Assembly (NCBI RefSeq): GCF_002286735.1
Contig: NZ_NRTA01000043.1
Location: 1 to 32,899 of the forward strand
DNA from: Leptolyngbya sp. BC1307
GTDB taxonomy: Bacteria > Cyanobacteriota > Cyanobacteriia > Phormidesmidales > Phormidesmidaceae
Direction: 5' to 3'
Length of the DNA stretch: 32,899 nt
The notes below the pieces were generated by a model. That model worked only from the letters and a program-made list of their open reading frames with translations, searched no databases and was not told the DNA's origin. The first letter of the stretch is position 1, and the number at the start of each line of letters is the position of its first letter. Both the position numbers and the translations under genes were made by a program. This document shows positions 10,175 to 32,762 of this stretch, in pieces.

Positions 10175-10256
10175 GTCTCTGTTGACTCATGTTTTCCCGG
10201 CCTGACGGCTGCTGTCGATAGTCATTATTGGGGCAGCAGGTCGGGCCACCAAAAAA

Positions 10257-10286
10257 GAAGTCTTGAGGTTGCCGCCTCAAGACTTC
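10257..10286. terminator. Perfect 12-bp stem-loop between nirA and nrtP
   Basis: GAAGTCTTGAGG (10257-10268) is perfectly complementary to CCTCAAGACTTC (10275-10286), with a 6-nt loop. Six A precede the left arm and there is no T-run on the right. As an intrinsic terminator it would therefore work on the minus strand. On the nirA transcript it is more likely a processing or mRNA-stabilising hairpin, or a partial terminator that tunes nrtP relative to nirA. Confidence 0.55.
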
Positions 10287-10353
10287 AGTTAAGTAGCCTC
10301 GCTCCGGAACCATCCGGGGCAGGGCATATCCATACCTAGGAGCATAGCGCAAG

Positions 10354-11985
10354 ATGATTGGAGAGTTGTTTACGAAAGCAACTCAGGGCAGGTATAGAAT
10401 ATTACACCTGACCTGGTTTGCCTTCTTTTTATCATTTGTTGTTTGGTTTAATTTCCCACCGTTCGCGACGACTATTGTTCAAGAGTTTGGCCTGACTCCC
10501 CAGCAGGCGGGCACTATCGGCCTGTGTAACGTGGCTTTGACGGTACCGGCTCGGATCATTATCGGGATGCTGCTCGATAAGTACGGCCCTCGCGTTACGT
10601 ATACCTGTCTGCTAATTTATGCGGCAATTCCCTGTTTGATCTTTGCAACGGCGACGAGCTTCAACCAGCTGGTTGTTGGCCGCTTGCTGATGGGGATTGT
10701 CGGTGCGGGCTTTGTAATCGGCATTCGCATGACCGCAGAGTGGTTCCCCCCAAAAGAAGTGGGTACAGCTGAAGGTATTTACGGCGGCTGGGGCAACTTC
10801 GGATCTGCGTTTTCTGCCTTCACGATGGTGCTTTTTGCGATGGCGCTGAGCTTCTTGCCCGGTTCGTTTAACTTCGGTGAGCCTCAGCCCTTCGAAGTTT
10901 TGGGGATGTCCTTCAGTAGCGAAGTTTTGAATTGGAGAGCGGCGATCGCAGGCTCCGGTATTGTGACAGCGCTATACGGCGTGTTTTACTACTTCAATGT
11001 CACCGACACGCCTCCGGGTAAAGTCTACCGTCGTCCTGCAAGCGCTCGCGGCATCGAAGTGACTACCGTTCGCGACTTCTGGTTCTTGATGGCCATGAAC
11101 GTCCCTCTGACGGCCATCTTGATGGTGATTGCCTGGAGACTGCAACAAGTCGGCTTTCTTTCTGTTCCGGCAATGTTTATCACCATGCTCTTGCTACTGG
11201 GGCTGTATGCGTTTCAGGCGTACAACTGCTGGATGGTCAACAAAGATCTCCTGGCCGGACGCAAACGCTACCCCGCAGAAGATCGCTATCGGTTTAAGCA
11301 GGTTGCGATTCTAGAGCTGACTTATGTTGTGAACTTTGGCTCTGAGCTAGCGGTGGTTTCCGTGCTACCTGCCTTCTTTGAAGGCACCTTCAGCCTGGAT
11401 AAAGCAGCCGCTGGGATGATTGCCGCGAGCTATGCGTTTATGAATCTGGTCTCTCGTCCGGGCGGCGGCATCATCTCCGACTCGGTCGGTAGCCGCAAGT
11501 GGACGATGACGGTACTGCTAGGCGGCATGGGAATTGGCTATCTGCTCTTTAGCATGGTCGGCAGCAGTTGGTGGTTGCCGGGGGCAGTGCTGCTGGTGAT
11601 GGCTTGCTCCTTCTTTGTGCAGGCAGCAGAAGGCGCTACCTTTGCCCTCGTGCCGCTGGTGAAGTCTCGGATTACAGGACAGGTTGCCGGCAACGTCGGT
11701 GCTTACGGCAACGTCGGCGCAGTCGCTTACCTGACAATTTTGCTCCTACTTCAACAGGCGCTAGTTCCTGCCGGTGATGGAGTCGATCCAGCCGTTATCG
11801 CCGCTGGAACGGCTCGGGCGAATGCGCTCTTTTTCCAGGTGCTAGGGGTAGCCGGTTTAATCGTCGCCTTCCTCTGTGCGTTCTTTCTGGATGAACCCAA
11901 GAACTCCTTTGCCGATGCTCACGAGGGTGAAGAGGTGGCCATTCCGGTTGCGCCTGCTGCTGGTAATCCTTCTGTGATGAGTTAA
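10354..11985 (+). CDS. nrtP: NrtP nitrate/nitrite permease (MFS, NNP family)
   Basis: This 543-aa major facilitator of the nitrate/nitrite porter family is expected to import nitrate and nitrite across the plasma membrane, as NrtP of Synechococcus sp. PCC 7002 does. The MFS motif GMLLDKYGPR (about 72-81) follows the second helix. The NNP glycine signatures are present in both halves: GGWGNFGSAFS (about 145-155) and AGNVGAYGNVGAVAY (about 446-460). Conserved substrate arginines appear in RMTAEWF and SRPGGG. About twelve hydrophobic helices can be traced. TAGGAGC about 12 nt before the ATG is a reasonable ribosome binding site. Its place between nirA and narB stands in for the nrtABCD genes of many freshwater cyanobacteria. 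Confidence 0.95.
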   Translation: MIGELFTKATQGRYRILHLTWFAFFLSFVVWFNFPPFATTIVQEFGLTPQQAGTIGLCNVALTVPARIIIGMLLDKYGPRVTYTCLLIYAAIPCLIFATATSFNQLVVGRLLMGIVGAGFVIGIRMTAEWFPPKEVGTAEGIYGGWGNFGSAFSAFTMVLFAMALSFLPGSFNFGEPQPFEVLGMSFSSEVLNWRAAIAGSGIVTALYGVFYYFNVTDTPPGKVYRRPASARGIEVTTVRDFWFLMAMNVPLTAILMVIAWRLQQVGFLSVPAMFITMLLLLGLYAFQAYNCWMVNKDLLAGRKRYPAEDRYRFKQVAILELTYVVNFGSELAVVSVLPAFFEGTFSLDKAAAGMIAASYAFMNLVSRPGGGIISDSVGSRKWTMTVLLGGMGIGYLLFSMVGSSWWLPGAVLLVMACSFFVQAAEGATFALVPLVKSRITGQVAGNVGAYGNVGAVAYLTILLLLQQALVPAGDGVDPAVIAAGTARANALFFQVLGVAGLIVAFLCAFFLDEPKNSFADAHEGEEVAIPVAPAAGNPSVMS

Positions 11986-12006
11986 GAGTTGTTCAAGGGT
12001 AAAGAT

Positions 12007-12071
12007 TGACACAGGTTTTTGTGTCAGTTTCCACTAAACCGGTAGGGGGCGTTTGATCGTCTCCTACCGGT
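12007..12071 (+). other. Two consecutive stem-loops between nrtP and narB
   Basis: The first is TGACACA/TGTGTCA (12007-12013 with 12020-12026, 6-nt loop), followed by GTTT. The second is ACCGGTAGG/CCTACCGGT (12038-12046 with 12063-12071, 16-nt loop), followed by a T-rich stretch. Both are perfect. They may attenuate transcription into narB or protect the upstream mRNA end. Neither has a classical long U-tract. Confidence 0.5.
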
Positions 12072-12104
12072 CTGTTTATCAGCATTTATGGGGAAGGTTC
12101 AGCG

Positions 12105-14408
12105 GTGTCACATTCAGCCAAAACAGGTTCGACCAAAACACTCTCAACCAAAACACTCTGTCCCTACTGCGGCGTAGGCTGCGGCCTAGAAGTTTTTCCG
12201 CCCGCTCGCAAAGGCCGGGGAATCACTCGTGACAGCGAAGGTCGGCCAATTTGGCAGGCGGTAGGCGATAGAGAGCATCCTTCTAGCAAAGGGCAGGTGT
12301 GCATTAAAGGCGCTTCGGTCGGCGAATCACTGAATAAAGACCGGCTCAAGCACCCGATGATACGGGAGTCGCTAGAGGTTCCTTTTCAGCAAGTAAGTTG
12401 GGAAGCAGCGCTCGGTAAGATCACCTCAGAAATTCAAAAATCAATTGAGCTGCGTGGCCCAAACTCCATCTGTATGTACGGCTCGGGGCAGTTTCAAACC
12501 GAAGATTATTACGCGGCGCAAAAGCTCATCAAAGGCTGCATCGGCACGAACAACTTTGATGCCAATTCGCGTCTCTGTATGTCTTCAGCGGTGTCGGGCT
12601 ATATTCAGAGCTTTGGCTCCGATGGCCCGCCCTGCTGCTACGACGATCTAGAGGAAACGGACTGTGCCTTTTTGATCGGCACCAACACCGCAGAGTGTCA
12701 TCCGATCATCTTTAACCGCTTGCGCAAGCATCACAAAAAAAATAAAGGCGTCAAGCTGATTGTGGTCGATCCGCGTCGTACGGATACTGCTAAGAATGCT
12801 GACCTGCATTTGGCGATTAAGCCGGGTACTGACATTGCCCTGCTCAACGGCATTGCCTATCTGCTCATTCGCCAGGGCAAGCACGATCCTGTTTTTATTG
12901 ATTACTGCACAGACGGCTTTACCGAATATGCTCAAGTAGCCGCTCAGTACCCGCCTGATCGCGTGGCGGAAATTTGCGGTATTGCCAAAGCAGATGTGGA
13001 AAAGGCCGCTAAGCTGTGGGGCGAGTCTCAGCGGGTGCTTTCGCTGTGGTCAATGGGTGTTAACCAGTCGAGCGAAGGCACGGCCAAGGTGCAAACGATT
13101 ATTAATTTGCACCTGATGACCGGCAACATTGGCCGTCCGGGGGCGGGGCCGTTCTCCCTGACCGGTCAGCCCAATGCGATGGGAGGCCGGGAGGCGGGCG
13201 GGCTGGCGCATATATTACCGGGCTACCGGTTGGTGAAAAATCCGGTTCATCGGCGGGTGGTTGAGCGGGTTTGGCAGTTGCCCGAAGGCAGTATTTCGCC
13301 GGAGCCCGGTTTGGCCGCTTGGGATATGATGCTGGCGCTGGAGCGTGAAGCGGTAGGCGTGCTGTGGGTAGCCGCTACCAACCCAGCGGTGAGCATGCCC
13401 GATATTGAGCGGACGAAGGCAGCGCTGCTAAAGTCGCCGTTTACCATTTGCCAGGATGCTTACTACCCGACTGAGACGGCAGCTTACGCGCATGTGCTGC
13501 TACCTGCGGCCCAGTGGGGCGAGGCTTCGGGCGTGATGACCAATTCTGAGCGGGTAGTGACGTTTTGTGAGGCTTTTCGAGCGCCGGTGGGCAGTGCTAG
13601 AGCGGACTGGGCAATCTTTGCTGAGGTGGGTCGCCGCCTGGGCTTTGAGAAGCAGTTTGATTGGTCGGATGCAGCGGCGGTGTATGACGAATTTGTCAGC
13701 CTGACGGCAGACCGGCTGTGCGATATGAGCGGGCTCAGTCATGAGCGATTGGCTAAAACAGGGCCGATTCAGTGGCCCGCACCGGTGTGTGAAACAGCAC
13801 AGACGGCGGCGACTAAGTTTGACAAGCGGCTGTATACTGATTTCAATTTTTTGACGGAGAACGGTCGGGCGAAGTTTGCCGCGTTTCATATCAAAGGGCT
13901 GGCGGAGCCGCCCGATCCGGAGTTTCCGATGGTGCTGACGACCGGGCGACTGCTCGGGCACTGGCATACGCAGACGCGCACCGGGCGAATTGAGAAGATT
14001 GCGAAGAAGTACAGCCAGCCGACACTAGAGGTCAATCCTCGGGATGCGCAGCAGATGCAGTTGCAGTCGGGAGATTGGGTAGAGGTGCGATCGCGCCGAG
14101 GCTTTGCCCATCTCCCCATCCGGGTCACTCAAAATATCTGCCGGGGCACCGTCTTTATGCCGATGCACTGGGGATTTTTATGGGCTGACAATGCTGAAGT
14201 AAATGGGCTTACCCATCCTCAGTCATGTCCGATTTCTAAGCAGCCAGAGCTGAAAGCTTGCGCCGTACAGCTCACGCTGATTGCTTCCCAGCCGCCGACC
14301 GCTGCGCCCACGAGCGCTGAGCAAATTATGGCGATGGTGCAGTCGCCGCCGGCTGTGACTCAGCAAGCTGCGATCGCCTCTCAGCGAGATCAGGTGGTTG
14401 CTCGATGA
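12105..14408 (+). CDS. narB: Assimilatory ferredoxin-nitrate reductase, molybdenum cofactor type
   Basis: NarB reduces nitrate to nitrite using ferredoxin, with a [4Fe-4S] cluster and bis-molybdopterin guanine dinucleotide. The N-terminal cluster ligands are C19, C22, C26 (CPYCGVGC) and C66 (KGQVCIKG). The molybdopterin oxidoreductase body follows, and the C-terminal MGD-binding domain starts near residue 600 ([19 protein letters not shown], then [10 protein letters not shown]). At 767 aa it is slightly longer than usual because of a Thr/Ser/Lys-rich N-terminal extension and an Ala/Gln-rich C-terminal tail. Translation starts at a GTG at 12105 with GGGGAAGG 7 nt upstream; the nearby ATG at 12088 is out of frame. 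It completes the nitrate-to-ammonium pathway with nirA. Confidence 0.97.
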
Positions 14409-14468
14409 CTGCTCGCAAGGTTGACCCTACCTGTAGTATTAGATTGAATCTACACAGCAAGGGGCAGC

Positions 14469-14921
14469 GTGAGCAATCGATTTATCAGGTTTCTTCGCCG
14501 TCATTCGAGCGACCAGGGCTTTTTAAAGAACTTAGAGCTGTTTGAGAGCCTGGTTTCTAAGCTGCTCTCGATTGCGATGGTGATAGTAATTATCGTCGTT
14601 ATCGTAGATCTGGGACTGTATTTGGCCGATGTCCTGTTCAACCCTGATCCCAACACCTTTTTGGGGACGACGCTGCTGAATATTTTTGGGTTGTTTCTCA
14701 GTGTGCTGATTGCGCTAGAAATTTTAGAAAATATTACGGCCTACCTGAGAAAACATGTCGTGCAGGTAGAGCTGGTAATTGTCACTTCGCTGACGGCAGT
14801 GGCGAGAAAGATCATTATTCTAGATCTGGAAAAGGTGACGGGGGTGAGTTTGATTGGGCTGGCGATCGCCATTCTCTCGCTTTCCATCAGCTACTTTATT
14901 GTTAAAAACGTGCATTCGTAA
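14469..14921 (+). CDS. PsiE-like (phosphate-starvation-inducible) membrane protein
   Basis: This 150-aa membrane protein of the PsiE family has four hydrophobic segments at about residues 31-54, 67-88, 100-118 and 124-145. Family-typical elements include the first helix ending VDLGLYLADVL, the LALEILENITAYL-like stretch (here IALEILENITAYL), and ARKIIILDLE. In Escherichia coli PsiE is induced by phosphate starvation, but its molecular function is unknown. The GTG start at 14469 is preceded by AAGGGGC. It lies 60 nt after narB and 12 nt before the next gene, so it likely belongs to a transcript with the LpxB-related gene. No Pho box was searched for rigorously. Confidence 0.85.
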   Translation: MSNRFIRFLRRHSSDQGFLKNLELFESLVSKLLSIAMVIVIIVVIVDLGLYLADVLFNPDPNTFLGTTLLNIFGLFLSVLIALEILENITAYLRKHVVQVELVIVTSLTAVARKIIILDLEKVTGVSLIGLAIAILSLSISYFIVKNVHS

Positions 14922-20488: not shown

Positions 20489-20579
20489 CGCAAAATAGCC
20501 CGGTATCTTCACCTCAGCTTACGGTGTTTTGAGAGCGGTTTCGGGCTCACTGAAAAGAGTTCTCTGCTTGCTCACCCTT

Positions 20580-21311
20580 ATGACTTATAGCCTGCGAGTT
20601 GCTGATATGGCCGAGGCCGAAAGACCTCGTGAGCGGCTGCTAGCTCACGGTGCCAAGCGTCTCTCTGCCGCTGAGCTGGTTGCCATTTTGCTGAGCACAG
20701 GTCAGGGGCCAGGCAAACTATCGGCAGTCGGGCTGGGTCATTTTTTGCTACAGCACTTGGGTAAAGATCAGCACAGCGGCGACGGCCTCTTGGCCCTGCG
20801 AGATGTCACCGCAGAAGAATTAATCGAAATTTCGGGGGTTGGCCCCGCCAAAGCTGCGACGATTTTGGCGGCGATAGAGCTAGGCAAACGGGTTTTACAA
20901 AGCCAGCCGCTGAACCTCACCGTAGTAGATGATCCGAGCGTAGCGGCAGCCGCCCTCGGTCACGAACTGATGTGGCAGTCTCAAGAGCGCTTTGCTGTCT
21001 TACTGCTAGATGTGAAGCATCGCATCATCGGCTCTAAGGTAATCACCATCGGCACCGCCACCGAAACCCTGGCCCACCCCCGAGAAATCTTCCGCGAAGT
21101 AATCAGACGCGGCGCAACTCGCGTGATCGTCGCGCACAATCATCCTTCAGGCAGCTTAGAGCCCAGCACTGAAGACATTCATCTCACCCGACAACTGCTC
21201 AAAGGCGCTCATCTCCTCGGCATTCCGCTGCTAGATCATCTGATTTTGGGCAACGGTGATTTTGCCAGCATTCGGCAGACGAGCGACCTGTGGAATGAGT
21301 CGATGGAGTGA
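20580..21311 (+). CDS. radC: RadC/DUF2466 JAB-domain protein
   Basis: This 243-aa RadC-family protein begins at the ATG at 20580 ([10 protein letters not shown]); a longer frame from a TTG at 20529 adds residues atypical of the family. The N-terminal part has a UPF0758 region with a helix-hairpin-helix ([15 protein letters not shown], about 81-95). The C-terminal MPN/JAB domain carries the metal-binding motif HNHPSG (186-191) and the downstream Asp (D199) in STEDIHLT. A role in DNA repair was proposed and later disputed, so the biochemical function is open. It is the last chromosomal gene before tRNA-Val and the integrase island. Confidence 0.92.
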
Positions 21312-21386: not shown

Positions 21387-21458
21387 GGGCGATTAGCACA
21401 GTGGTAGCGCGCTTCCTTCACACGGAAGAGGTCACAGGTTCGAACCCCGTATCGCCCA
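21387..21458 (+). tRNA. tRNA-Val (anticodon CAC)
   Basis: The 72-nt cloverleaf folds with a perfect 7-bp acceptor stem (GGGCGAT with ATCGCCC), discriminator A, and a D-arm containing AGTGGTA. The anticodon stem is CTTCC/GGAAG with loop TTCACAC (anticodon CAC, Val codon GUG), and the T-arm loop is TTCGAAC. CCA is not encoded. A, C mismatches occur in the D- and T-stems. The 3' end is a classic integrase target, and an integrase gene begins 210 nt downstream. Confidence 0.95.
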
Positions 21459-21596
21459 TAATTACGTAAATGACTGAAACCGTTGACTTGCAGCACTCAA
21501 AGGCTTGTAAATCAATGGTTTTGAAAGCTGGTCAAATTCCTTTGTCAGGAAGCGGCTTTGTAACAGTTGGTCATTTTTAGGCGACTTTAGCTCCCG

Positions 21597-21668: not shown

Positions 21669-22838
21669 ATGTACAGCAAAAAATCAGGCAGAGCACCCAA
21701 AGGTTCTGTAGGCATTGAATCCTTTCGCGGCAGATTACGGATACGACTGCCCCGGCACCTGTATGACGGTAAGCAAAAGTATCTTTCGACTGACCTGGCC
21801 GATGCTGCCATCAACCGGAAAGTGGTTGAAGCCAAAGCCAAGCTCATGGAGTCGGATATAGCCCTTGAGCGCTTTGACTATTCTCTGGTGAAATACGGCA
21901 AGCCCAAGCCAGCTCAGCTAGCCGCGCTAGAGCCCGCACAGCTTCAGAGTATGAAGGTTATGGAACTTTGGGAGCGATATGCCGCTGACAAACGGTCTGG
22001 GTTGAAGCCCAAGACTCAGGAAAAGTATGACAATCTCACTCGGTTATATAGGAAGTTAGGGGAGGTGACTATCGACGAGCCTTTGATAGTCAAACAAAAA
22101 CTGGAGCAGGTCACTACCATCTACCGCACGAAGGATGGGCTCATGTATTTGGCTGCGGCCTGCCGCTGGGGCAAGAAACACAAGCTGGTTTCGTCTAACC
22201 CCTTTGAAGGGATGGCCCAGGAGCTGCCTAAATACCGTTATCAGGTCGATCCTAAGCCGAATGCCTTTACTGAAGAAGAGCGAGATCGGGTTATTGAGGC
22301 GTTTCGGCGCGATCAGCGTAAAGGCATGAACTATAGCCACTACGCCCCATTCGTTGAATTTTTGTTCTGCGTAGGTTGCAGACCGAGTGAGGCAATTGGT
22401 TTGCAGTGGCAGCACATTTCAGAAGACTTTGGCACCATCAGCTTTGAAGGCTCGCTGGTACAAATCGGAAACCGCCGGATTCGCAGCAAGGGGAGCAAAA
22501 ATAATAAAACTCGGCAAATCGCTGTTTCCAGGCGAGTTCAGGCTTTGCTAGAGTCGATCATGCCGGAAGAACCACGGCCCACTCAGCTTGTTTTTCCTTC
22601 GCGGGATGGAGACTCTATCAGCTATCGTAACTTTTCTCGAAGAGCCTGGACTCGGATCGTCAATCCTATCAAGCCTGATACGACTCCCTACTGTTGTCGA
22701 GACACATTCATTACGACGCAATTAATAAAGGGCGTACCGAGTACAGTGATCGCAAAATGGTGCGATACCTCGACTCAGATGATCGATAAAAACTACGCAG
22801 ATAAACTCAAGCTTGCGCAGATTCGGCCACAAGATTAG
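21669..22838 (+). CDS. Tyrosine site-specific recombinase (integrase) of a genomic island
   Basis: This 389-aa tyrosine recombinase would integrate and excise a mobile island at the neighbouring tRNA-Val. The N-terminal 80 residues form an arm-binding-like domain, a SAM-like core-binding domain spans about 95-185, and the catalytic domain about 200-385. Active-site residues are R238 (GCRPSEAIGL), a Lys in KNNKTRQIAV (K280), R344 in PYCCRDTF, W364 and the nucleophile Y376 (DKNYADKL). In the HxxR box the His is Tyr (Y341), and the residue after R is Asp rather than His. A Tyr at the first position is common in cyanobacterial island integrases. The gene reads away from the tRNA, the usual arrangement. 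It appears to lack HIP1 sites. Confidence 0.9.
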   Translation: MYSKKSGRAPKGSVGIESFRGRLRIRLPRHLYDGKQKYLSTDLADAAINRKVVEAKAKLMESDIALERFDYSLVKYGKPKPAQLAALEPAQLQSMKVMELWERYAADKRSGLKPKTQEKYDNLTRLYRKLGEVTIDEPLIVKQKLEQVTTIYRTKDGLMYLAAACRWGKKHKLVSSNPFEGMAQELPKYRYQVDPKPNAFTEEERDRVIEAFRRDQRKGMNYSHYAPFVEFLFCVGCRPSEAIGLQWQHISEDFGTISFEGSLVQIGNRRIRSKGSKNNKTRQIAVSRRVQALLESIMPEEPRPTQLVFPSRDGDSISYRNFSRRAWTRIVNPIKPDTTPYCCRDTFITTQLIKGVPSTVIAKWCDTSTQMIDKNYADKLKLAQIRPQD

Positions 22839-23099: not shown

Positions 23100-23114
23100 A
23101 TGTTTGAAAAATGA
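23100..23114 (+). promoter_or_regulatory. Four-codon leader ORF overlapping the start of the defence operon
   Basis: ATG-TTT-GAA-AAA-TGA (23100-23114) encodes MFEK and its stop overlaps the ATG of the 807-aa gene as ATGA. The only good Shine-Dalgarno sequence, AAAGGAG (23083-23089), is about 10 nt before the leader ATG but 21 nt before the gene ATG. Ribosomes may therefore load at the leader and re-start at the gene, coupling translation of the first defence gene to the leader. An in-frame ATG at 23079 would extend the leader to 11 codons. Confidence 0.35.
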
Positions 23115-25534
23115 GCGAGGTGGATTTTTCTCGGTCTGGACGAGCGGAACAGGTTTGGCGGAAGCTTAGGATTGAGAGCAACTGGGGCCATTTTAATCGT
23201 CCGTCAGGACATCGCTTCTTGGGTAGCCTTCGATTATCAAAGCTAGACTCAGATCAGCTATTAGACATCACCTCAGAGAACCTGAACCGGTTGAGTTCGG
23301 TAACTTTTAAGCGGTTATGCGATCGCTTCAACCTGAACGACCCTAAGAAATACTGGATCCGCATTGTCACGCTGGCGCTATCTGAATATGCCTACTATGA
23401 CGACGGTGAAGATGGTTTTTGGCAGGGGGTGTGCGATCACCTGAGTGTAGAAAACAGCCAAGGGATTCAAAACGCGCTCAGAGAAGTGCTTAATCAAGGA
23501 TTCAATCTGCTTGGTCTAGTGCAAGCTCAAAAGAAAAATCGCTATGTTTCAACGCTATGGCTGCAAAGTGGTATTCCTCAGCAAAATTTGGCTCAATTTG
23601 CTCAATTGTTAGCAGAACTCTCATCACAGTACGATTGGTGGGATATTAATGATGCGGAGCCGGAAGATCTATCCTGTTTGTTGTACGATTTTTGTCAGGA
23701 ACACCATCCTCAGTGGGGAAAGCTACTCACTTTCCTGAGCAGTAGCTGTGCGAAAGATGACGATAGCGTAGAACCTATCTCGGGGCAAATACTCAAGGGG
23801 ATTGCCTTTGTCGCTAAGTCTTTGGAGCAAAAAGGTCTAAATCCAGTAGTACTGAAGGATGCCCATGAACGAGAAAGACTCCTTCAGAACTTTGGGTTGT
23901 CTAATACTTTTTTCCTTCGCGACTGGGATGATTTCGTCAGCGTACTTACACCGCAAAGCAATAGTTTGCATCGTAGGCGCAGTATTGTCAGCCATCGTAA
24001 AAAGCCTTTGTCGTTATGGCTCGATATATTTGACACGGAGGAAATTCAGCTTGTTTTGCCTGCTCAAACACTTCAAAGTTCAGACTGGAAAGTCTTGAGC
24101 GATACCTATGTGAATATTCCAGAGCGAGGCTGGGAGTCAACGTTTTCAAGGAATGGAAAGCTAGAGATTTCAGAAGACGTTACGTCGCTAGTCGAACAAG
24201 TCGCTAATGAATGGGTTTGGCATTTGCGATCGCACAGCAATACGTCTCTAACAGAGTGGTGCTGCGAGGGGACTTCACCTGCTTTACCGCTTTTGTTTTT
24301 CGATGCTGAGACAGGCGATCACCTGTCACCACATGATGGGTTGAGAGGTATTACTGATATTATTGTTTTCCACTCTAGAGACGTTCAAATAGCGTTATCT
24401 AAAGGCGTTAAAGTCGAAAAGAGCTTTGTTCCCTGTAGTATTGCTGGTTGGCGAGGTCAGCAGATTCGGTTGGCTGACGAGCAGGCACAGCTAACAGTTC
24501 ACGGTGCTCAATCTACAAAAGTTGTTCCGTGGGAAAGATCTCAGGAAGAATTTCTTCAGCTTCGAGGACTTAAGCTGAAGCACAAAACACCAATTTACCT
24601 GGAAGCGCCTTCTGTTTGGCATCCATCTGTCCTTTTGCCTAAGACCGTGAGTATTCGGATTGAGAATCTGAATACTCGTAAAGTACTCACTGAAGCAGAT
24701 GAGCAAATTCGATTAAAAGCTAGCGACACTTGGCAGGCAATCGAATTATCAAAATGGATTGATAGTAAGGGCAAGTATTCCGTGCTTATCTGGAATGAGA
24801 ATGAGCGCTGGCATGAGAAATTTGAGCTTCGCTCTAGTTTTGAGCTTGAGCAATCCTTACTTATCGATCAAGCTCAGGCGTACGACCTCGACGAGCAACC
24901 TCTCTCTATGCCAATTTGGGTCTCTTCAACTCAAGACTTTTGGTTGGAAGAGCTAAAGTTGAAGAACTTATGGCCACTAGAAGAAGTTATTTTTACACTT
25001 GAAAGCCAGAAAGAAAAGCATTCCTTTACCAGACATGCTAACTCGTTTGGCCTACTATCTATATCGTTGGCATCTTTTCGGGATGACCTACCTGAGTCAG
25101 GTAGGTATGGCTTGAGCTATCAGCGACAGGGTGAAGACCATCAAAGCCTATTAGATGTGTCTTGCGAAGAGTCGATGGACAATATCGTGACAGAGCAGAG
25201 ATACCTTTTGCCAAAGGCAAGTGCTGATGAGCTGTCTTCAGATAAAAAGCGGACGAGTGTAGAATCTGAACCTCAACAGATAACTTACTCTCTTAATATC
25301 AAAAACAACACACGTGAAATACGTAAAGCATTTTGCACGAGGTTCTCGAATCAGCTAAAGAAAACTGGATTGACACAGCACAATATCGAACTCATCAAAG
25401 ATCCGATTCTGAAAGATTTGATTTTGATTAAGATCGGAAGTCAGCAGGACTTTACTATTCTAGAAGATACTGCAAATGATGTTGCGTCTACTCTCTACAC
25501 GAGTATAAGTCTGATCGCTTGGGGAAAACGATGA
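23111..25534 (+). CDS. Large unknown protein, first gene of DUF1998-helicase defence operon (DruH-like candidate)
   Basis: I do not recognise a domain with certainty. The 807-aa soluble protein has no membrane segment. Residues 1-280 are helical (WRKLRIESNWGHFNRPSGHR and onward). Residues 290-480 look mixed alpha/beta, with SLWLDIFDTEEIQLVLPAQ and a GWRGQQIRL motif. Residues 500-690 are beta-rich with Ig-like strand patterns. The C-terminal 90 residues (after a Ser/Glu linker) form a small alpha/beta domain. It overlaps the next gene by 4 nt (ATGA) and is followed by a giant DUF1998 helicase. In type III Druantia a large protein, DruH, precedes helicase DruE. By position and size this is the equivalent gene, but homology to DruH is an inference I cannot test by eye. 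Confidence 0.8.
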   Translation: MSEVDFSRSGRAEQVWRKLRIESNWGHFNRPSGHRFLGSLRLSKLDSDQLLDITSENLNRLSSVTFKRLCDRFNLNDPKKYWIRIVTLALSEYAYYDDGEDGFWQGVCDHLSVENSQGIQNALREVLNQGFNLLGLVQAQKKNRYVSTLWLQSGIPQQNLAQFAQLLAELSSQYDWWDINDAEPEDLSCLLYDFCQEHHPQWGKLLTFLSSSCAKDDDSVEPISGQILKGIAFVAKSLEQKGLNPVVLKDAHERERLLQNFGLSNTFFLRDWDDFVSVLTPQSNSLHRRRSIVSHRKKPLSLWLDIFDTEEIQLVLPAQTLQSSDWKVLSDTYVNIPERGWESTFSRNGKLEISEDVTSLVEQVANEWVWHLRSHSNTSLTEWCCEGTSPALPLLFFDAETGDHLSPHDGLRGITDIIVFHSRDVQIALSKGVKVEKSFVPCSIAGWRGQQIRLADEQAQLTVHGAQSTKVVPWERSQEEFLQLRGLKLKHKTPIYLEAPSVWHPSVLLPKTVSIRIENLNTRKVLTEADEQIRLKASDTWQAIELSKWIDSKGKYSVLIWNENERWHEKFELRSSFELEQSLLIDQAQAYDLDEQPLSMPIWVSSTQDFWLEELKLKNLWPLEEVIFTLESQKEKHSFTRHANSFGLLSISLASFRDDLPESGRYGLSYQRQGEDHQSLLDVSCEESMDNIVTEQRYLLPKASADELSSDKKRTSVESEPQQITYSLNIKNNTREIRKAFCTRFSNQLKKTGLTQHNIELIKDPILKDLILIKIGSQQDFTILEDTANDVASTLYTSISLIAWGKR

Positions 25535-26454
25535 GTAAGCAGCAAATCATAAAAATATTAAGCAATCACCGACACGCTCACTGCTTTAGTCTGGCAAAGC
25601 CGCTAACGTTAAATGCGATTACAAAGCTTCTTGAATCCAGTTTGCCACCACACCACGCTACAGAGGCTCTCAAAAGTAACGTCTATGAAAGCTTGCTAGA
25701 ACTGCAAGCTCAAGGAGAAATCCTCATAGGTATGGGCAATCAATTTTGCATGGCTCCGCCTACTGTAATTACAGAAGATAAAACGGATTTGATCGGGATT
25801 TTGTTTAAGGGCGATCGCGCATATCTAAAGCTGGCGCATCAAGCTCTAGAAACTGGACAGCCTTGTGATCGAACTATTCTGCATCCTAAACTTCAGAAGT
25901 TTGATTGGCTCGAAGCGCGTCTGAAAAATTGTCATATCCGGCTCCTGACCGTCTCAGACAGCGTAATACAGTTACTTAATCCTGACTGTCCAAAACGCTC
26001 TCGGCTACTTGGGGCAGAGTGGCCCGAAGATCCATTTTATACACTTCAAGGAACAGTCAACGTTCAATCATACATTCCTGAGCTTGGAGCAGGGCAGTGG
26101 GATCGATGGCAATCCACTACCCGACATCAGATCGCTGATCGCTCGCTTCTAAGATTGCCTACGGGTGAATATCTTTGGTTTGAAGAAGCGCAGATGTATG
26201 AGCTGACTCCTGACGAAGCCTGCTTAGCTATGTTTTGGCTAGACCGGCAGATGGATTGCCCTATTCTCCTTGCTTGGGATGAAACACCGGGCCGATTAAA
26301 TTTGCAAAAGACTACGCTGCCTAGCACCTACGCACAGTGGCTTTGGCGGTTGTCTGAACCCGATGAAAATCAACCCAGGACGCGACGCTTTCAGCCATCT
26401 CATCGTCCATTTGTGTGTGAAGCGCTTGCTCGGTTGGGCTGCAAGTTAGTTTGA
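25531..26454 (+). CDS. Unknown 307-aa protein, second gene of the helicase defence operon
   Basis: No family is recognisable. The gene starts at the ATG at 25531, overlapping the previous stop as ATGA; an in-frame TTG at 25519 is less likely. The N-terminal about 85 residues (IIKILSNHRHAHCFSL, then a helix-rich stretch and LLELQAQGEILIGMGNQFCM) have the rhythm of a winged-helix DNA-binding domain. The rest is mixed, with many Trp and Pro residues, and ends in PFVCEALARLGCKLV. Translational coupling to the 807-aa protein suggests the two act as a pair, possibly as one protein split in two. Only 32 nt separate it from the helicase gene, with no terminator. Confidence 0.85.
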   Translation: MSKQQIIKILSNHRHAHCFSLAKPLTLNAITKLLESSLPPHHATEALKSNVYESLLELQAQGEILIGMGNQFCMAPPTVITEDKTDLIGILFKGDRAYLKLAHQALETGQPCDRTILHPKLQKFDWLEARLKNCHIRLLTVSDSVIQLLNPDCPKRSRLLGAEWPEDPFYTLQGTVNVQSYIPELGAGQWDRWQSTTRHQIADRSLLRLPTGEYLWFEEAQMYELTPDEACLAMFWLDRQMDCPILLAWDETPGRLNLQKTTLPSTYAQWLWRLSEPDENQPRTRRFQPSHRPFVCEALARLGCKLV

Positions 26455-26486
26455 GCCTTATTTATTGTTCTTAGTTATTTACCTTT

Positions 26487-29400
26487 ATGTCTGACTACCT
26501 CAACCCGATTGATGCTGCGCAACAACCTCGCCAGAACCTGATTCGCTATCTACTCACCGCGTATCCCCTACGCGACCCGCATCTGAGATATGGCTTCAAG
26601 CAACTGTTAGAGGAGCCAGGGGCGATCTATCAATATCCTTATCTTGAGGGAGCGCAGCCCTATCAAGCAGGCACCAGTCTTGAGAATCTGGTGGCACAAA
26701 AGATACTGCATCCGTCAGTTCTCAAGATGTTTGATCCGACGCGCGTACTTTATAAGCATCAGGAAGAAGCCATCATAGCGGTTGCAGCGCGACAGGAAAA
26801 CATCGTCGTTGCGACTGGAACTGGATCGGGCAAAACAGAATGCTTCCTCATTCCAATGATGGATTACCTGCTTAAGCACCCGCAAAAGGGTGTACAGGCT
26901 TTAATTTTGTACCCGATGAATGCGCTGGTCAACGACCAGGTAAAGCGGTTACGGCAGGTGCTTTGTCATCAGGGTGAAGAGCAGGCGCTGGTTCGGTTTG
27001 GGTTTTACACCAGCCGCACTGAAAAAACACCTCAAGATGCCAGAGAGAGTCTTAAGGCAGAGCTAGAAGCCAGTGATCGAGAAGAACTTTTAGCGCTGTT
27101 TACAAAAGAAGAAAAAGCATCGTGTAATCTCAGTCGCCCTGAATATCTTGTCGATGCTGCTATAGACAAAATTATGAGGGTACAGGCAATCTCTAGAGAA
27201 GAGATTTGGGAAAACCCGCCTCAAATCTTAGTCACAAACTACTCCATGCTGGAGCATATGCTGATCCGTCCGCAGGAGCGGGAGTCAATTTTTGCCAGCG
27301 CTCAGCATTTTAAGATGCTGGTGGTGGATGAAGCGCACTCCTACAGCGGCTCAACCGGTACGGAGGTAGCTATGCTGATTAAGCGGTTCAAGTCTGCTGT
27401 TGGCATTGAAGATGAAGGTCAGATGCAGGGCATTGCAACCAGTGCCACGCTAGGCGATCGCACAAAAGAAAACGTCGTTAGCCAAGTGAGCGAATTTGCC
27501 CAAGACTTATTTAGCGAACCTTTTGAGCAAGTAATTTGGGGTGATCGCATTCCGGTAAACCAACGGTTGGGCACTCCCTACAATCTGCCAGACGGCCTGA
27601 CAGAATCCGATATCTACGAGCACTTTTACGACTTAGACATTCCTGCCCTAGATAGTTCAATGGAGGAATGGCGAGAGGAGTTGAGTTATCTCATCCCTGA
27701 GCCGACACTAGAAGATGCCGCTAATCAGGCCAGGGATATTCATCATTTTCTGTGGTTGGTTTTGGGACGAAACCCAACCATTCACCGTTTGATTGAATGC
27801 CTTGGCAAAAGCCCTCAGCCATGGAATCAACTAGCGCGATCGCCTCAACTCTGGGAAGTGCCTACAGCATTAGATGGTAGCCTGCCATCACAGGTAGACA
27901 AGAAGCTAGAGAAAGCGCTTTCTAACTTAGTCAAACTCGGAACCTTAGCCAAAGAGAACGCGCATTCGCTGCCGCTGCTTCCGGTGAGACTCCATCTACT
28001 GTTTCGCAGTATGGAAGGGCTTTATGCTTGCGTTGATGCCAAGTGCAAAGAAGCGGCTGTTGACCCATCTGTGGGTGAGCGTTCCAACTGCTATGGCAAG
28101 TTGTATCTCAATAGCAAGGTTGATTGTGAGTGCTGTGCGTCACCTGTAGTAGAACTCGCTAGCTGTCGTAAGTGCGGCCAGTCGTATGGATTGACTCATT
28201 TGGGCCAAAGCGATGAGCTACAGCTATTGCCCCGTTCTTTAGAAGCGCTAGAGAACAGTCATTCAGTTTACGTCCTTACCGCTGGGAATTTAGATAGTGT
28301 CACTAATGATGAAGGAGACGATAGCGAGGAGATAGATACTACAGAAACAGCGGTCAAAGACACTGTAGGAAGCTTTGAGATTTGCAAAAGCGGACGGAGC
28401 AATGGCTGGATCGGGAAGAAAAGTGGCAATCCGATTGATGAGTCAGCTTCATCAGCACATCAGTTGGTTTGGCATCGCCCGCCCAAAGCCGTTAATCTTG
28501 AGGGGGGCTATCTCAACCAGTGCCCTGCCTGTGGGGCAAGGCGATCGCACGCCTCTCCTATTGGGCGATTTGTCTCTTATACCGATGCGCCCTTAGAAGT
28601 CATGCTTGATAGCTTGTTTGAGCTGTTGCCCCAGCCAAAAACAGAAAAAGACTCTTTACAAGCGACTGGACGTAAACTTCTCACTTTTTCCGATGGGCGG
28701 CAAGATGCGGCTTTCTTTGCTTCTGATTTTCAGCGCACCCATACCGAGGCTCTCTACAGACAGCTAATTTGGCGAGCTTTTGAGGAAGTACAAGAGAACA
28801 ATGTCACCTCAGTCAACCAAGTAGAAGAAAAGTTAGTTGAATATTTCTTAGAAAGATCTATTCCTCATCCAGATAGAGAATCTGATAAACATCATCGTAG
28901 CTATGTTGCTGATGATACGAATGAAGAGAGTAGTCTGAATCAAATCGACTGTGCAAAACGAGCACGGAGCCGTGCTAAAGAGCTGCTGATTCGGGAATTT
29001 GGGGTGCCGTCTGCTCGTCGGTTTTCGGTTGAGGCACTAGGGCTGCTGAGCTGTCACATAGAAGATTTTTCTCCCTCTTTCTTAGCGCAGGTAACCGAGC
29101 AATTCAAGTTGCCAGTGACTGAGAATTTTATGATCGCCCGGATCTTTCTGACGGGGCTAACAGATATGATTCGGCTGATGGGTGCGATTGACCTTCAGGG
29201 AACGTCTCGCTATTTCCCAGAAACAGGAGGCGTCAGCGGCGGACAACCTGCCAGATTTGATGCCAAAGGTCGCTCTCAAAGTTACTTAAAGCTAGAAAGA
29301 GATCCAAAAGACACGCAGGCAATTTCCTTTCTCTGGCGGAAGAAAGCAAACGGTGAACCGGCACAGCGGCAGAATCAGATTGTCATGTACTATTGCATTT

Positions 29401-32400
29401 TTTTGCAGGGCCTTCCTTCTGAAGAGAGTTTGTCGTGGCTATTTGATGAGCTGCTTCGGCAGGGTACTTTAGTTAAATACAGAGATGGTCGTCAGCTTCA
29501 TTGGGAGCTGGTCAATCTCAGGCAGACTGCCCACGATTGGCATCAGTGCAATACCTGTCAGCAAATCTTCCAGGTTCCAGGACTTTCTGAGGTTTCCAAG
29601 CAATCTACAGTAGGCGTTGATCGCTGCTTAGCGCCTCAGTGTGAAGGTGTTTTACAGCCTTTCAATCTCGATTCAGATTATTTTTCAGACCATCACTATC
29701 GGCATTTGATTCAAAAGCGCAAAGCGCTGCCGCTGCGATCGCAAGAACACACCGCTCAGCTAGGTACCGAAGAATTAGCCAAGCGCGAAAACCGTTTTCG
29801 GCAAGGCAAAATCAACCTGCTGAGCTGCTCAACAACGCTAGAAATGGGGGTAGATATTGGTGAATTGCAGGCAGTCGCGCTGCGCAACTTTCCGCCCCAT
29901 GTGAGCAACTATCAGCAGCGGGCAGGCCGAGCCGGTAGGCGAACAGACGGTGTGGCTATTACGCTTATGTATGGCCAACGCCGGCCTCATGACCGCTATT
30001 ATTTTGAGCGTCCTGAGCAGCTAATCGATGGCAAGAATCAGGTTCCCAAACTCGATCCTACCAACTTTGAAATTCAAAACCGGCATATTCGAGCCGAATT
30101 GCTGGCCTTGTTCCTGCGGACAGAATACGGTGCCGGGGCAGAAAAAATAATGATGGCTGGGTTCTTGGGTCTTCCTGAAAACCTTATGCAGCTATCTAAA
30201 ATTCCGACAGAATCTATTTTGCTACGGCTCAAAGAATGGCTACATGGGCAGAAAGCGGAGACTTGCGTTCAGCAATGGTTGAGTCAACTGAAGACACAGA
30301 AGCCCGCCGGTTCTGTTCTTGAGCAGTTTGAAATAGACCTGAAGGCATTTCAGACTGCTCAACTGGAAGATTGGAACGCCTTATCAAACTTACTGACCGG
30401 TCTAAAACAAGCAGTTCGCGACGCTGAGGACGCGAATGAAAGCAAACGGCAGAAAGGCTTTGAATACAAGCGCGACCGCATTAAAGAGGAACTGACGAAA
30501 ATTCAGAAGCGACAGCTTCATGAAGAGCTAGCGAAAGCAGGCATTCTACCAATATACGGGTTTCCGATTGACGTGGTGCAACTGCTGACCAGAGAGAGCC
30601 AACGCTTCTCGAAAGGACAGGGAAAGCATCGACTACAGCGCGATCGCCGTCTAGCATTAGGGGAATATGCTCCTGGCCAAAGCGTCGTCGTCGATGATCG
30701 CGTCCACAAAAGCGTCGGGGTCTTACGGCCCGATGACCTGCCTAGCCGCGCTTACTGGGTTTGCCAATCCTGCAACTTTTTTATGGCAGGCAGTACAGAC
30801 TTAACGCTGCTCGCTAGGCTAGGTGTAGAAGACGGCGATCCTAAATGTCCAGTTTGCGCAGTAAAGCTGCCCGCTGCTAACCAAAAGCCCCGGCATTACA
30901 AAGTCCCTAAATCCTTTATCACCGACTGGAGCGAAAACCCAGCCGTCACACCTCGCAGAAAACCTATGCGCCAGCCCACTTCGCAGGTTTTTCTGGCGCA
31001 GGAAGGCGATTCTTCAGAACCGATGCTAGAGCCGTTTTTTGAACTCATCACCAGCCAGGGCGGTCAGTTCTTTCTGGCCAATCAAGGCGGTAAGGGCGGC
31101 AGGCATCAGGGCTTTGCGCTGTGTCGGCGGTGTGGCCGTGACCTGACCGAGCTGCGTAATAAGATTTCTCGGAAAAAAGCTTCGCAAAGAAAGTCCTCGC
31201 CGCTCCCTCATACTCACCCCATTACGGGTATCGCGTGTGAAGGATGGCACGAACCTACGCATCTGGGCCACGAGTTTCGCAGCGATTTGCTGAAAATTCG
31301 CTTTACGCCTGCGGCAAAGCCTCAAAGCTTATTTGGGGCGGTGACTCATTTAGATGGCGGACGAGAAATTCATTCGGATGCTGACTCAGACGTGCCCGTA
31401 GACGGGTCTGCTTTTTGGCGGTCGCTCACCTATGCCCTACTCGCTGCCGCTGCTCAGATAATTGACGTTCCTCGCTCTGAACTAGATGGCCTATTTAGCC
31501 CGCTCGAACAGAGCTTTGGAAACGTGGCAGAAATTATTATTTACGACAACGTTCCCGGCGGGGCTGGCTACAGCCGACGCATTGCCGATCAGTTCTCAGA
31601 AGTCTTGCAGCGTGCCTACCAGCTAGTCGAGTCCTGTAGCTGTAGCAGCAGTTGTTACGACTGCCTGCGAACCTATACCAATCAGGCGTTCCACCATGAG
31701 CTTAATCGACATCTCGTTTCAGAATTTTTGAGCCCAATTGTAGAAGATATACAGCCGGACGCGGTGCTGAAAGCCTTTGCGCCGAATGCGAACCGGGTCG
31801 ATTTGCTGCGAATGTCTGAAAGGCTAGACAGCTATTACGCTATGGCTGGAGCGCGCAGTATTGCCTATTTGCCTGCGATCGCTGCCCCATTCACTCTCCA
31901 ACGATTGACTCAAATGATCAACGCGCTAGGCGGCAGCACATCGCTAGAACTTATTGTGACTGACCTGCCTGAACGAGGTGAAGACGATCAGGTCAGGGTT
32001 TTACGCAAGCGACTGTCTCAGTGGATTGACCAGGGGACATTGAAATTGTATACCACAGCTCAGCGGCAAAATCCTCTCTTGTGTCTGAGCAGTCAGCTCT
32101 CACATAGAATAGCTTTGCAGCTCCAGCCCGCTTCAGATGGGAAACCTGTAGAATGGCTGCAAACTCGGAGTGAACAAGGGGTAGCGTCTGTTTTTCAGAA
32201 GTTGCAAACGTTGAAAGAGGATGCAGCAGTTGTTGAATCTGAAGCGCTAGAAGATCCTAATACGCAGGTGATCTTTTTAACGCCTGATGGGAAGCTACTC
32301 ACGCTTGAACAGCTCAGAGAAGTGATGGGGCTATCGTCAGTTCTAAAAGGGAACCAGATCAAGAAGCTGATTTATAGCGATCGCTACCTGAACAGTCAGC

Positions 32401-32762
32401 AAAGTCCTAGAGCCAACATTCTAAAGTCACTACTTCAGAGTGAGTGGACAACTGCGGCCTCTCACCTCACCATCCACATACAGCAACTGAAGGCTGAATA
32501 CGACAGCCGCAGCACACATCGCCGTAAAGATATTGAGGAAGAACTATCAAGGCTACCTGGACAGCTCAAAGTCGAAATGCGTCCATATCCAAACCGCCAC
32601 AGACCACCTTTTCCTCACCAGCGTGAGTTGACTATCTGGCTCACTAACAATGCGACTTACCGTATTCTTTTCGATAAAGGGTTAGATTTTCTCGATCAAG
32701 CGCCCAATGGAATGTACCGTATTACAGAAGCCACGTACATTGTGATTATTAAGGCATCTTAG
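26487..32762 (+). CDS. Giant DEAH-box helicase with DUF1998/MZB cysteine cluster (DruE-like)
   Basis: This 2091-aa superfamily 2 helicase is probably the DNA-translocating core of an anti-phage system. The N-terminal RecA domain has Walker A GTGSGKT (111-117), DEAH (281-284) and SATLGD (319-324). The second RecA domain has motif V-like TTLEMGVDIG and motif VI QQRAGRAGRR near 1141-1152. The roughly 800-residue insertion between them carries CxxC pairs (about 547-563, 678-681). More CxxC knuckles lie near 1021, 1425, 1454 and 1545. A CSCSSSCYDC cluster (about 1717-1726) marks DUF1998/MZB. The last 50 residues hold HQRELTIW and KGLDFLDQ, resembling the MIT_C phospholipase-D-like fold. Length and order fit DruE of Druantia; DISARM DrmA/DrmB and MrfA/YprA helicases are related but shorter or split. 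Confidence 0.92.
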   Translation: MSDYLNPIDAAQQPRQNLIRYLLTAYPLRDPHLRYGFKQLLEEPGAIYQYPYLEGAQPYQAGTSLENLVAQKILHPSVLKMFDPTRVLYKHQEEAIIAVAARQENIVVATGTGSGKTECFLIPMMDYLLKHPQKGVQALILYPMNALVNDQVKRLRQVLCHQGEEQALVRFGFYTSRTEKTPQDARESLKAELEASDREELLALFTKEEKASCNLSRPEYLVDAAIDKIMRVQAISREEIWENPPQILVTNYSMLEHMLIRPQERESIFASAQHFKMLVVDEAHSYSGSTGTEVAMLIKRFKSAVGIEDEGQMQGIATSATLGDRTKENVVSQVSEFAQDLFSEPFEQVIWGDRIPVNQRLGTPYNLPDGLTESDIYEHFYDLDIPALDSSMEEWREELSYLIPEPTLEDAANQARDIHHFLWLVLGRNPTIHRLIECLGKSPQPWNQLARSPQLWEVPTALDGSLPSQVDKKLEKALSNLVKLGTLAKENAHSLPLLPVRLHLLFRSMEGLYACVDAKCKEAAVDPSVGERSNCYGKLYLNSKVDCECCASPVVELASCRKCGQSYGLTHLGQSDELQLLPRSLEALENSHSVYVLTAGNLDSVTNDEGDDSEEIDTTETAVKDTVGSFEICKSGRSNGWIGKKSGNPIDESASSAHQLVWHRPPKAVNLEGGYLNQCPACGARRSHASPIGRFVSYTDAPLEVMLDSLFELLPQPKTEKDSLQATGRKLLTFSDGRQDAAFFASDFQRTHTEALYRQLIWRAFEEVQENNVTSVNQVEEKLVEYFLERSIPHPDRESDKHHRSYVADDTNEESSLNQIDCAKRARSRAKELLIREFGVPSARRFSVEALGLLSCHIEDFSPSFLAQVTEQFKLPVTENFMIARIFLTGLTDMIRLMGAIDLQGTSRYFPETGGVSGGQPARFDAKGRSQSYLKLERDPKDTQAISFLWRKKANGEPAQRQNQIVMYYCIFLQGLPSEESLSWLFDELLRQGTLVKYRDGRQLHWELVNLRQTAHDWHQCNTCQQIFQVPGLSEVSKQSTVGVDRCLAPQCEGVLQPFNLDSDYFSDHHYRHLIQKRKALPLRSQEHTAQLGTEELAKRENRFRQGKINLLSCSTTLEMGVDIGELQAVALRNFPPHVSNYQQRAGRAGRRTDGVAITLMYGQRRPHDRYYFERPEQLIDGKNQVPKLDPTNFEIQNRHIRAELLALFLRTEYGAGAEKIMMAGFLGLPENLMQLSKIPTESILLRLKEWLHGQKAETCVQQWLSQLKTQKPAGSVLEQFEIDLKAFQTAQLEDWNALSNLLTGLKQAVRDAEDANESKRQKGFEYKRDRIKEELTKIQKRQLHEELAKAGILPIYGFPIDVVQLLTRESQRFSKGQGKHRLQRDRRLALGEYAPGQSVVVDDRVHKSVGVLRPDDLPSRAYWVCQSCNFFMAGSTDLTLLARLGVEDGDPKCPVCAVKLPAANQKPRHYKVPKSFITDWSENPAVTPRRKPMRQPTSQVFLAQEGDSSEPMLEPFFELITSQGGQFFLANQGGKGGRHQGFALCRRCGRDLTELRNKISRKKASQRKSSPLPHTHPITGIACEGWHEPTHLGHEFRSDLLKIRFTPAAKPQSLFGAVTHLDGGREIHSDADSDVPVDGSAFWRSLTYALLAAAAQIIDVPRSELDGLFSPLEQSFGNVAEIIIYDNVPGGAGYSRRIADQFSEVLQRAYQLVESCSCSSSCYDCLRTYTNQAFHHELNRHLVSEFLSPIVEDIQPDAVLKAFAPNANRVDLLRMSERLDSYYAMAGARSIAYLPAIAAPFTLQRLTQMINALGGSTSLELIVTDLPERGEDDQVRVLRKRLSQWIDQGTLKLYTTAQRQNPLLCLSSQLSHRIALQLQPASDGKPVEWLQTRSEQGVASVFQKLQTLKEDAAVVESEALEDPNTQVIFLTPDGKLLTLEQLREVMGLSSVLKGNQIKKLIYSDRYLNSQQSPRANILKSLLQSEWTTAASHLTIHIQQLKAEYDSRSTHRRKDIEEELSRLPGQLKVEMRPYPNRHRPPFPHQRELTIWLTNNATYRILFDKGLDFLDQAPNGMYRITEATYIVIIKAS

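What the first reader, a model, noticed from the sequence alone, without database searches (positions are those of the whole stretch)
23111..32762. Candidate variant anti-phage system: two unknown proteins plus a DUF1998 giant helicase
Three tightly packed genes (ATGA overlap, then a 32-nt gap) sit behind a tRNA-linked integrase. The last is a 2091-aa DEAH helicase with DUF1998/MZB cysteines, the hallmark of Druantia DruE and of DISARM-type helicases (established knowledge). No methyltransferase, PLD nuclease (DrmC) or DUF4338 protein (DruA) is visible, which excludes complete DISARM and type I/II Druantia in this window. The nearest known layout is type III Druantia (DruH plus DruE). Here, however, there are two upstream genes (807 and 307 aa) instead of one, so this may be a split or new subtype.
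Basis: partly seen in the sequence, partly recalled or inferred. Interest (0 to 1): 0.85.

Follow-up and report, generated by a model that had tools for sequence, protein, structure and literature searches.

The report
New three-gene Druantia-type phage defence cassette
Cyanobacteria carry a mobile three-gene cassette that pairs a giant Druantia-type DNA helicase with two undescribed partner proteins; it most likely blocks viruses and looks like a new subtype of a known bacterial immune system.

Summary
In detail: A (23111-25534, 807 aa), B (25531-26454, 307 aa) and C (26487-32762, 2091 aa) form a tight cassette behind a tRNA-Val and an integrase. C is a Druantia helicase (PADLOC DruE1 776 bits, DruE3 720; closest solved chain 9tu7), not housekeeping MrfA. 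Its C-terminus aligns with that of E. coli DruE, which papers call an active PLD nuclease. A-B-C order is kept at 16 of 16 genome loci found with B, on three plasmid lineages and in two further genomes (some copies are broken); all named hosts are cyanobacteria. "Split DruH" is not supported: neither A nor B matches DruH by HMM or profile-profile comparison, and C proteins form their own clade outside the sampled type III. B shows a remote profile match to DruL, the small protein before DruE in type IV; its model starts with a winged-helix-like domain. A's weak model has a helical start and Ig-like domains, as DruH is described; homology is unproven. Best reading: a new Druantia subtype, A as sensor, B as adaptor, C as helicase-nuclease. 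Antiphage activity is inferred. Bell et al.'s "type III-like" branch could not be sampled, so C may belong to a published branch.

The parts
21387..21458 (+). tRNA-Val (CAC), likely integration site
   Evidence: ARAGORN
21428..21459 (+). 32-nt tRNA 3' end, candidate attL; a perfect copy without a recognised tRNA gene lies on contig C11 of the same genome (candidate attR)
21669..22838 (+). tyrosine recombinase/integrase, 389 aa
   Evidence: Pfam Phage_integrase and Arm-DNA-bind_2
23111..25534 (+). gene A, 807 aa: helical N-terminal part, then tandem Ig/FN3-like beta-sandwiches; proposed sensor
   Evidence: no family hit beyond chance
25531..26454 (+). gene B, 307 aa: N-terminal winged-helix-like domain; remote DruL-like profile; proposed adaptor
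26487..32762 (+). gene C, 2091 aa: DruE-type SF2 helicase with C-terminal PLD-type region
26817..26837 (+). C Walker A, GTGSGKT (residues 111-117)
27327..27338 (+). C DEAH box (residues 281-284)
31425..31667 (+). C MZB/DUF1998 domain with cysteines C1717, C1719, C1723, C1726
32373..32681 (+). C C-terminal PLD-type region (residues 1963-2065): YSDRYL and H2044xR2046xL...D2063xG; that these are the catalytic residues is inferred
   Evidence: alignment to E. coli DruE; motif count

Best explanation
A mobile, cyanobacterial three-gene Druantia-type antiphage system. C is the effector: a DruE helicase that loads on 3' single-stranded tails of replicating phage DNA, unwinds them and cuts with its C-terminal PLD-type domain. 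A is the fast-diverging sensor, with a helical N-terminal part and Ig-like domains that would recognise a phage component, in the place of DruH. B is a small winged-helix adaptor, remotely related to DruL, that couples A or DNA to C. Shown here: tight gene order, co-occurrence, helicase family and motifs. Predicted here: winged-helix-like start of B, Ig-like part of A. Inferred: defence activity, sensing, coupling and nuclease activity.
For: C matches seven DruE profiles at 459-776 bits; the next families are SngC 112, BrxH 98, DpdJ 92 and DISARM DrmA 64 bits (best 25 of 51 shown). Nearest solved chain is 9tu7, 2108 aa, E 3.5e-88, against 1e-29 for MrfA/YprA 6znp. Walker A, DEAH and MZB cysteines invariant in five cassette helicases and E. 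coli DruE. HxRxL..DxG near the C-terminus in 9 of 11 cassette helicases and in 6 of 9 type III rows. A-B-C order at 16 of 16 genome loci, 12 of them with three unbroken genes and full-length C; on 5 of 5 plasmid records with B, of which three are near-identical and have A split in two; in G280, and in G187 with C broken. C is the only MZB protein found in the genome. B-DruL profile score 36.2 over 189 columns, 0 of 150 column shuffles as high (max 24.0), above 55 of 55 control profiles, real or reversed (max 25.1). B residues 1-78 match winged-helix domains (VIA Z 10.1 to 8.1, rmsd 1.3-2.8 A in 45 of the 50 rows shown). A's Ig/FN3-like part (residues 478-678, Z up to 8.2). A diverges fastest in 6 of 6 pairs, e.g. 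window against L020: A 48%, B 54%, C 68%, as PMC13192584 reports for DruH against DruE. Divergent WYL-domain gene upstream in 13 of 23 loci plus a cut piece in L035; integrase, tRNA and candidate att repeat.
Against: I know of no antiphage test of this cassette. A's model is poor (pLDDT 59, pTM 0.36) and its structural matches are generic Ig folds. B-DruL is nominally only 38% probable, single DruL sequences do not stand out from unrelated proteins, leaving one row out lowers the score to 28.7, and PADLOC scans of 15 B proteins give no DruL. Foldseek alone has no match for B at E<=0.001. Two cassettes have helicases ending near residues 1742-1754, before the PLD-type region (G187, L036), so nuclease output cannot be universal. 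No WYL gene was found in the window.
Confidence: 0.7

Rival explanations
1. Split or strongly diverged Druantia type III: A plus B together equal DruH (807+307=1114 aa against 1119 aa in E. coli), with a type III DruE.
For: Length sum; similar described architecture (helical N-terminal region plus three Ig-like domains, PMC13192584 passages); DruE3 is the second-best DruE type; shared C-terminal motif; a by-eye resemblance of A residues 85-156 to DruH 68-139 (my note).
Against: The other 18 single-frame A proteins have 952-1382 aa, so the length sum is particular to the window. A-DruH and B-DruH profile comparisons not significant (A N-terminal part 10 of 150 shuffles as high, full length 4 of 60). 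DruH profiles: 0 of 14 A members, 0 of 15 B members. Cassette helicases form a clade separate from the 8 type III rows, both with SH-like support 100. The profile aligner did not pick my by-eye alignment.
Confidence: 0.15
2. A divergent Druantia type IV: A is DruF and B is DruL.
For: Same layout, large gene then ~300-450-aa gene then DruE (Calothrix L017, Nostoc C052 L079, TIOX110 L081). B-DruL profile match.
Against: A against DruF not significant (6 of 40 shuffles as high; N-terminal part 4 of 40); no DruF hit in 14 A members. DruE4 has the lowest best score of the four DruE types for C (485 bits). The two type IV helicases in the tree sit with type I, apart from the cassette clade.
Confidence: 0.08
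3. Housekeeping DNA repair by a YprA/MrfA helicase with two accessory genes.
For: Shared MZB domain and helicase core.
Against: Profile and solved-chain searches put C with DruE; A is patchy (4 of 386 genomes, own included), occurs on plasmids and near integrases in some loci; several decayed copies (G334, L023, L026).
Confidence: 0.03

Closest known systems
Druantia type III (DruH-DruE)
   Same: DruE helicase whose C-terminus aligns with that of E. coli DruE; a large, fast-evolving upstream partner with Ig-like domains; can sit at tRNA genes (PMC12458937 figure legend)
   Different: no detectable DruH; an extra 307-aa gene B; helicase outside the sampled type III clade
Druantia type IV (DruF-DruL-DruE)
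   Same: gene order large - small - DruE; B remotely like DruL
   Different: A does not match DruF; helicase of another clade
Druantia type I (DruABCDE)
   Same: best DruE profile is DruE1 (776 bits); a ~350-aa gene (DruD) right before DruE in Nitrosococcus
   Different: no DruA, DruB, DruC or DruD match in the window's A or B
Druantia III-B / 'type III-like' branch of Bell et al. (PMC12458937)
   Same: described there as a distinct helicase branch in which PLD domains occur only occasionally
   Different: could not be compared: no sequence known to be of that branch was within reach

Membership tests
Druantia (any type) | DruE helicase (DEAH core plus DUF1998/MZB) | tested here: met
   PADLOC DruE1/3/2/4 at 776/720/527/485 bits; motifs
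Druantia (any type) | antiphage activity | not testable with these tools
   needs phage challenge
Druantia type III | DruH partner | tested here: not met
   no DruH profile hit for A or B; profile-profile not significant
Druantia type III | A shares the DruH fold (9tud) | tested here: inconclusive
   9tud not in the 50 rows shown for A's weak model; not known whether it is in that library
Druantia type III | helicase within the DruE3 clade | tested here: not met
   8 type III rows one clade, 11 cassette rows another, both SH-like support 100 (FastTree with long-branch warnings); III-B branch not sampled
Druantia type III | C-terminal PLD nuclease end | tested here: met
   HxRxL..DxG aligned to E. 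coli DruE, motif count; activity not tested
Druantia type IV | DruF | tested here: not met
   no hit in 14 A members; profile test 6 of 40
Druantia type IV | DruL | tested here: inconclusive
   profile-profile match, no PADLOC hit
Druantia type I | DruA, DruB, DruC, DruD | tested here: not met
   no profile hit for A or B of the window; one DruC hit in a relative (L033) lies in an N-terminal extension that the window's A lacks; B-DruD 48 of 150 shuffles as high
DISARM | separate DUF1998 gene (DrmB), methyltransferase, DrmC | tested here: not met
   MZB fused in C; A and B have no such hit; the window ends 137 nt after C
[quoted passage not shown]
   A and B precede C; no methyltransferase annotated round three plasmid cassettes; the window's downstream side is not visible
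MrfA/YprA housekeeping | closest to MrfA | tested here: not met
   6znp E 1e-29 against 9tu7 E 3.5e-88

The most novel reading that the evidence does not exclude
A distinct Druantia type in which an unrelated Ig-domain sensor (A) replaced DruH and is linked to DruE through a winged-helix, DruL-like adaptor (B); in some cyanobacteria the sensor carries an N-terminal hydrophobic segment and a long extension, perhaps placing surveillance at the membrane. DruE would then be a common helicase-nuclease module onto which different sensors are plugged.
Probability: 0.4. Interest if true: 0.72.

Novelty: new variant of a known kind. Interest (0 to 1): 0.6.

Why it matters
It would add a cyanobacterial Druantia subtype of which PADLOC 2.0.0 recognises only the helicase, and it separates the constant part (DruE) from exchangeable partners, so that what senses infection in Druantia becomes testable by swapping partners. 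The remote B-DruL link suggests a shared adaptor next to DruE in more than one type.

Tried and rejected
Rejected: A+B = split DruH; A = DruF; B = DruD (48 of 150 shuffles as high); A = type I protein before DruD (14 of 40 and, for the N-terminal part, 17 of 40 as high). Profile tests against shuffles were 12 in all. B-DruL stood out. The DruH N-terminal part against the type I protein was marginal (23.2 against a null maximum of 21.6, 0 of 40). In the other ten, between 3 of 40 and 69 of 150 shuffles reached the real score. JetC, LmuB and DruC hits of A relatives lie in the N-terminal extension and are gone when it is left out of L031 and L033, though L033 then shows one weak other hit (PD-T4-9_A, E 0.0096).

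Led nowhere: viral contigs for A and B, no relative; first genome-contig scan with C alone; Foldseek for B, nothing at E<=0.001; A's top structural hits are generic complement, fibronectin and Ig folds, and 9tud is not in the rows shown; Pfam for 14 A members, at most two members per family, best E 0.0037; a slow maximum-likelihood tree did not finish, so the tree is FastTree, with long-branch warnings, and four partial rows (G254, C052, TIOX110, G218) were dropped. A comparison with 18 relatives did not resolve the element's right end. Tree labels: III from a DruH-type partner (PADLOC for E. coli, annotation for the others), I from DruA annotation or a DruD match, IV from PADLOC hits; ARM is my own label from the neighbours.

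Full report
What is there. The window is contig 43 of a 4.9-Mb genome draft. That it is a cyanobacterium is inferred: the named relatives are cyanobacteria. A 32-nt perfect copy of the tRNA 3' end, with no tRNA gene recognised there, lies on contig 11. This is what an attR would look like, but the window contig ends 137 nt after C and the right border is not resolved.

C is a Druantia helicase. The best PADLOC scores per type are DruE1 776.5, DruE3 720.4, DruE2 526.8 and DruE4 484.9 bits; the next families are SngC 112 and BrxH 98, and DrmA has 64. The closest solved chain is 9tu7 (2108 aa, E 3.5e-88). I infer that it is the DruE of PMC13192584, since the E. coli DruH matches 9tud, which is named DruH. 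Walker A, DEAH, the second RecA motifs and the four MZB cysteines are invariant across five cassette helicases and E. coli DruE. Near the C-terminus, HxRxL..DxG aligns with the end of E. coli DruE; PMC13192584 and PMC12458937 place an active PLD nuclease in that last domain, and that this motif is its catalytic site is my inference. The motif is found in 9 of 11 cassette helicases. The helicases of G187 and L036 end near residues 1742-1754, before this region. PMC12458937 says that in its type III-like branch helicases most often lack a nuclease domain. No other MZB protein was found in the genome.

A and B are undescribed families as far as I could search. Neither has a hit beyond chance in PADLOC, Pfam or NCBIfam. 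A occurs in 4 of 386 and B in 3 of 386 genomes of the phylum, the window's own included. The genome with A but no B, G334, keeps only a C-terminal remnant of C. In G280 the cassette is intact; in G187 C is broken into two frames. Five plasmid records carry B, all with A and C in the same order; three of them are near-identical, and there A is split in two. A sixth plasmid record holds only a 93-residue piece of A. A B-seeded scan of genome contigs gave 16 loci. In all 16, A or its remains precede and C or its remains follow B. A is broken or partial in L023, L026 and L037; C is broken in L023 and L026 and short in L036; so 12 of 16 have three unbroken genes with full-length C. B is present there by construction, so the independent evidence for co-occurrence is the A search and the C search. 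The C search gave 12 of 386 genomes at E<=1e-30. Of these, G000, G280 and G187 have the cassette, G334 a remnant, and G282 a 50%-identical C cut by a contig end (no A or B found in that genome). The other seven have only distant helicases (27-42% identity); frames of 150 aa or more in the regions fetched round them, and round a second, distant helicase of G282, have no A or B match at E<=1.

Is it a split DruH? The sum 807+307 is close to 1119, but the 18 other single-frame A proteins have 952-1382 residues. Sequence and profile comparisons with E. coli DruH and seven other DruH-type proteins are negative, and PADLOC's DruH models hit 0 of 14 A and 0 of 15 B proteins. A DruH profile found DruH in 1 of 386 genomes, a member of another class of the phylum. 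By eye, A residues 85-156 recall the N-terminal patch that PMC13192584 finds essential in DruH (my note). The profile aligner did not pick that alignment, so I count it as a lead only.

B resembles DruL. The profile of 22 B proteins against five DruL-type rows scores 36.2 over 189 columns. Two of the five rows appear to be the same protein (leaving either out changes nothing); three of the five have PADLOC DruL hits, and the other two are tblastn relatives of one of these (82% and 25% identity). The best of 150 column shuffles is 24.0, and the best of 55 control profiles, forward or reversed, is 25.1. Leaving single rows out gives 28.7-41.0. Against it: the nominal probability is 38%, single DruL sequences do not stand out, and HMMER finds no DruL in 15 B proteins. 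The AlphaFold model of B (pLDDT 85) begins with a winged-helix-like domain, residues 1-78, close to Z-alpha, Fur and linker-histone domains; the rest was barely tested by that search.

A looks like a recognition protein. Its model is weak overall (pLDDT 59), but residues 478-678 match Ig/FN3-like sandwiches (Z up to 8.2) behind a helical N-terminal part. PMC13192584 (parts 1-2 of 15 and passages seen) describes DruH as having helical ends and three Ig-like domains, as the likely phage sensor and as more divergent than DruE. A is likewise the fastest-diverging gene here in 6 of 6 pairs (48%, 54% and 68% for A, B and C against L020). In 4 of the 18 other A proteins (L021 of G187, L031, L033, L036) there is a 359-465-residue N-terminal extension that begins with a hydrophobic segment; in L031 and L033 it matches JetC and LmuB profiles, which I take for coiled coil.

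Tree. In a FastTree of 34 helicases the 11 cassette rows are one clade (SH-like support 100) and the 8 type III rows another (100). The cassette joins two helicases of other classes of the phylum (G016, G018; 98); its place relative to types I/IV and III is unresolved, and the program warns of long branches. The III-B / type III-like branch of PMC12458937 could not be added, so the helicase may belong to that branch.

Mechanism. I think that C works as DruE does: it loads at 3' single-stranded DNA of replicating phage genomes, unwinds and cuts (reported for E. coli DruE in PMC13192584, inferred here). A senses a phage component, and B passes the signal or delivers DNA. In M. smegmatis, contact between DruH and DruE is reported to be required (PMC13316683, parts 1-2 of 7 read), while PMC13192584 found no stable DruH-DruE complex in E. 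coli; so whether A, B and C form a stable complex is open. A divergent WYL-domain gene lies upstream of A in 13 of 23 loci, with a cut piece in L035, which suggests regulated expression; it was not found in the window.

Literature. Of PMC12458937 I read parts 1-3 of 8, the figure legends and passages; of PMC8565338 (type IV), passages. Searches (listings, the last two capped at 20 rows) showed no paper on this cassette; supplementary tables could not be read, and the helicase could be listed in one of them. Doron et al. 2018, which defined types I-III, is known to me only through these papers and recall.

Noticed in passing
L011, L013, L023-L030, L032, L034, L037 upstream of A: a divergent WYL-domain gene (45-92% identical to that of L013) precedes A in 13 of 23 loci; a cut piece in L035; not found in the window
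   Followed up: partly
L031, L033, L036 and L021, start of A: A carries a 359-465-residue N-terminal extension starting with a hydrophobic segment; in L031 and L033 it matches JetC/LmuB profiles, probably coiled coil
   Followed up: partly
L021 (G187) 11038-14832 and L036 10948-16188: cassette helicases that end right after the MZB domain, before the PLD-type region
   Followed up: partly
L079 1-7792 (Nostoc sp. C052 plasmid): dcm-type methyltransferase, a 664-aa gene (DruF by position only), a 302-aa gene (25% identical to a DruL, tblastn) and a DruE-type helicase in a row: may be a type II/IV hybrid Druantia
   Followed up: no
L066 4992-15447 and L065 8811-14951: the helicases nearest to the cassette clade (other classes of the phylum) have no A or B match nearby; that of L066 directly follows a type I restriction (REase_I) gene
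   Followed up: partly
L067 6015-13578 (G218): DruH followed by a DruE cut by the contig end, in the phylum but outside the window's class; the only DruH in 386 genomes
   Followed up: no
L013 9299-24927: in Pseudanabaena the cassette lies tail to tail with another YprA-type helicase next to an annotated 3'-5' exonuclease gene
   Followed up: no
window 8615-14408: nitrite/sulphite reductase, MFS transporter and molybdopterin oxidoreductase in a row: looks like a nitrate assimilation cluster
   Followed up: no
window 20529-21311: RadC-like gene directly before the tRNA-Val insertion site
   Followed up: no
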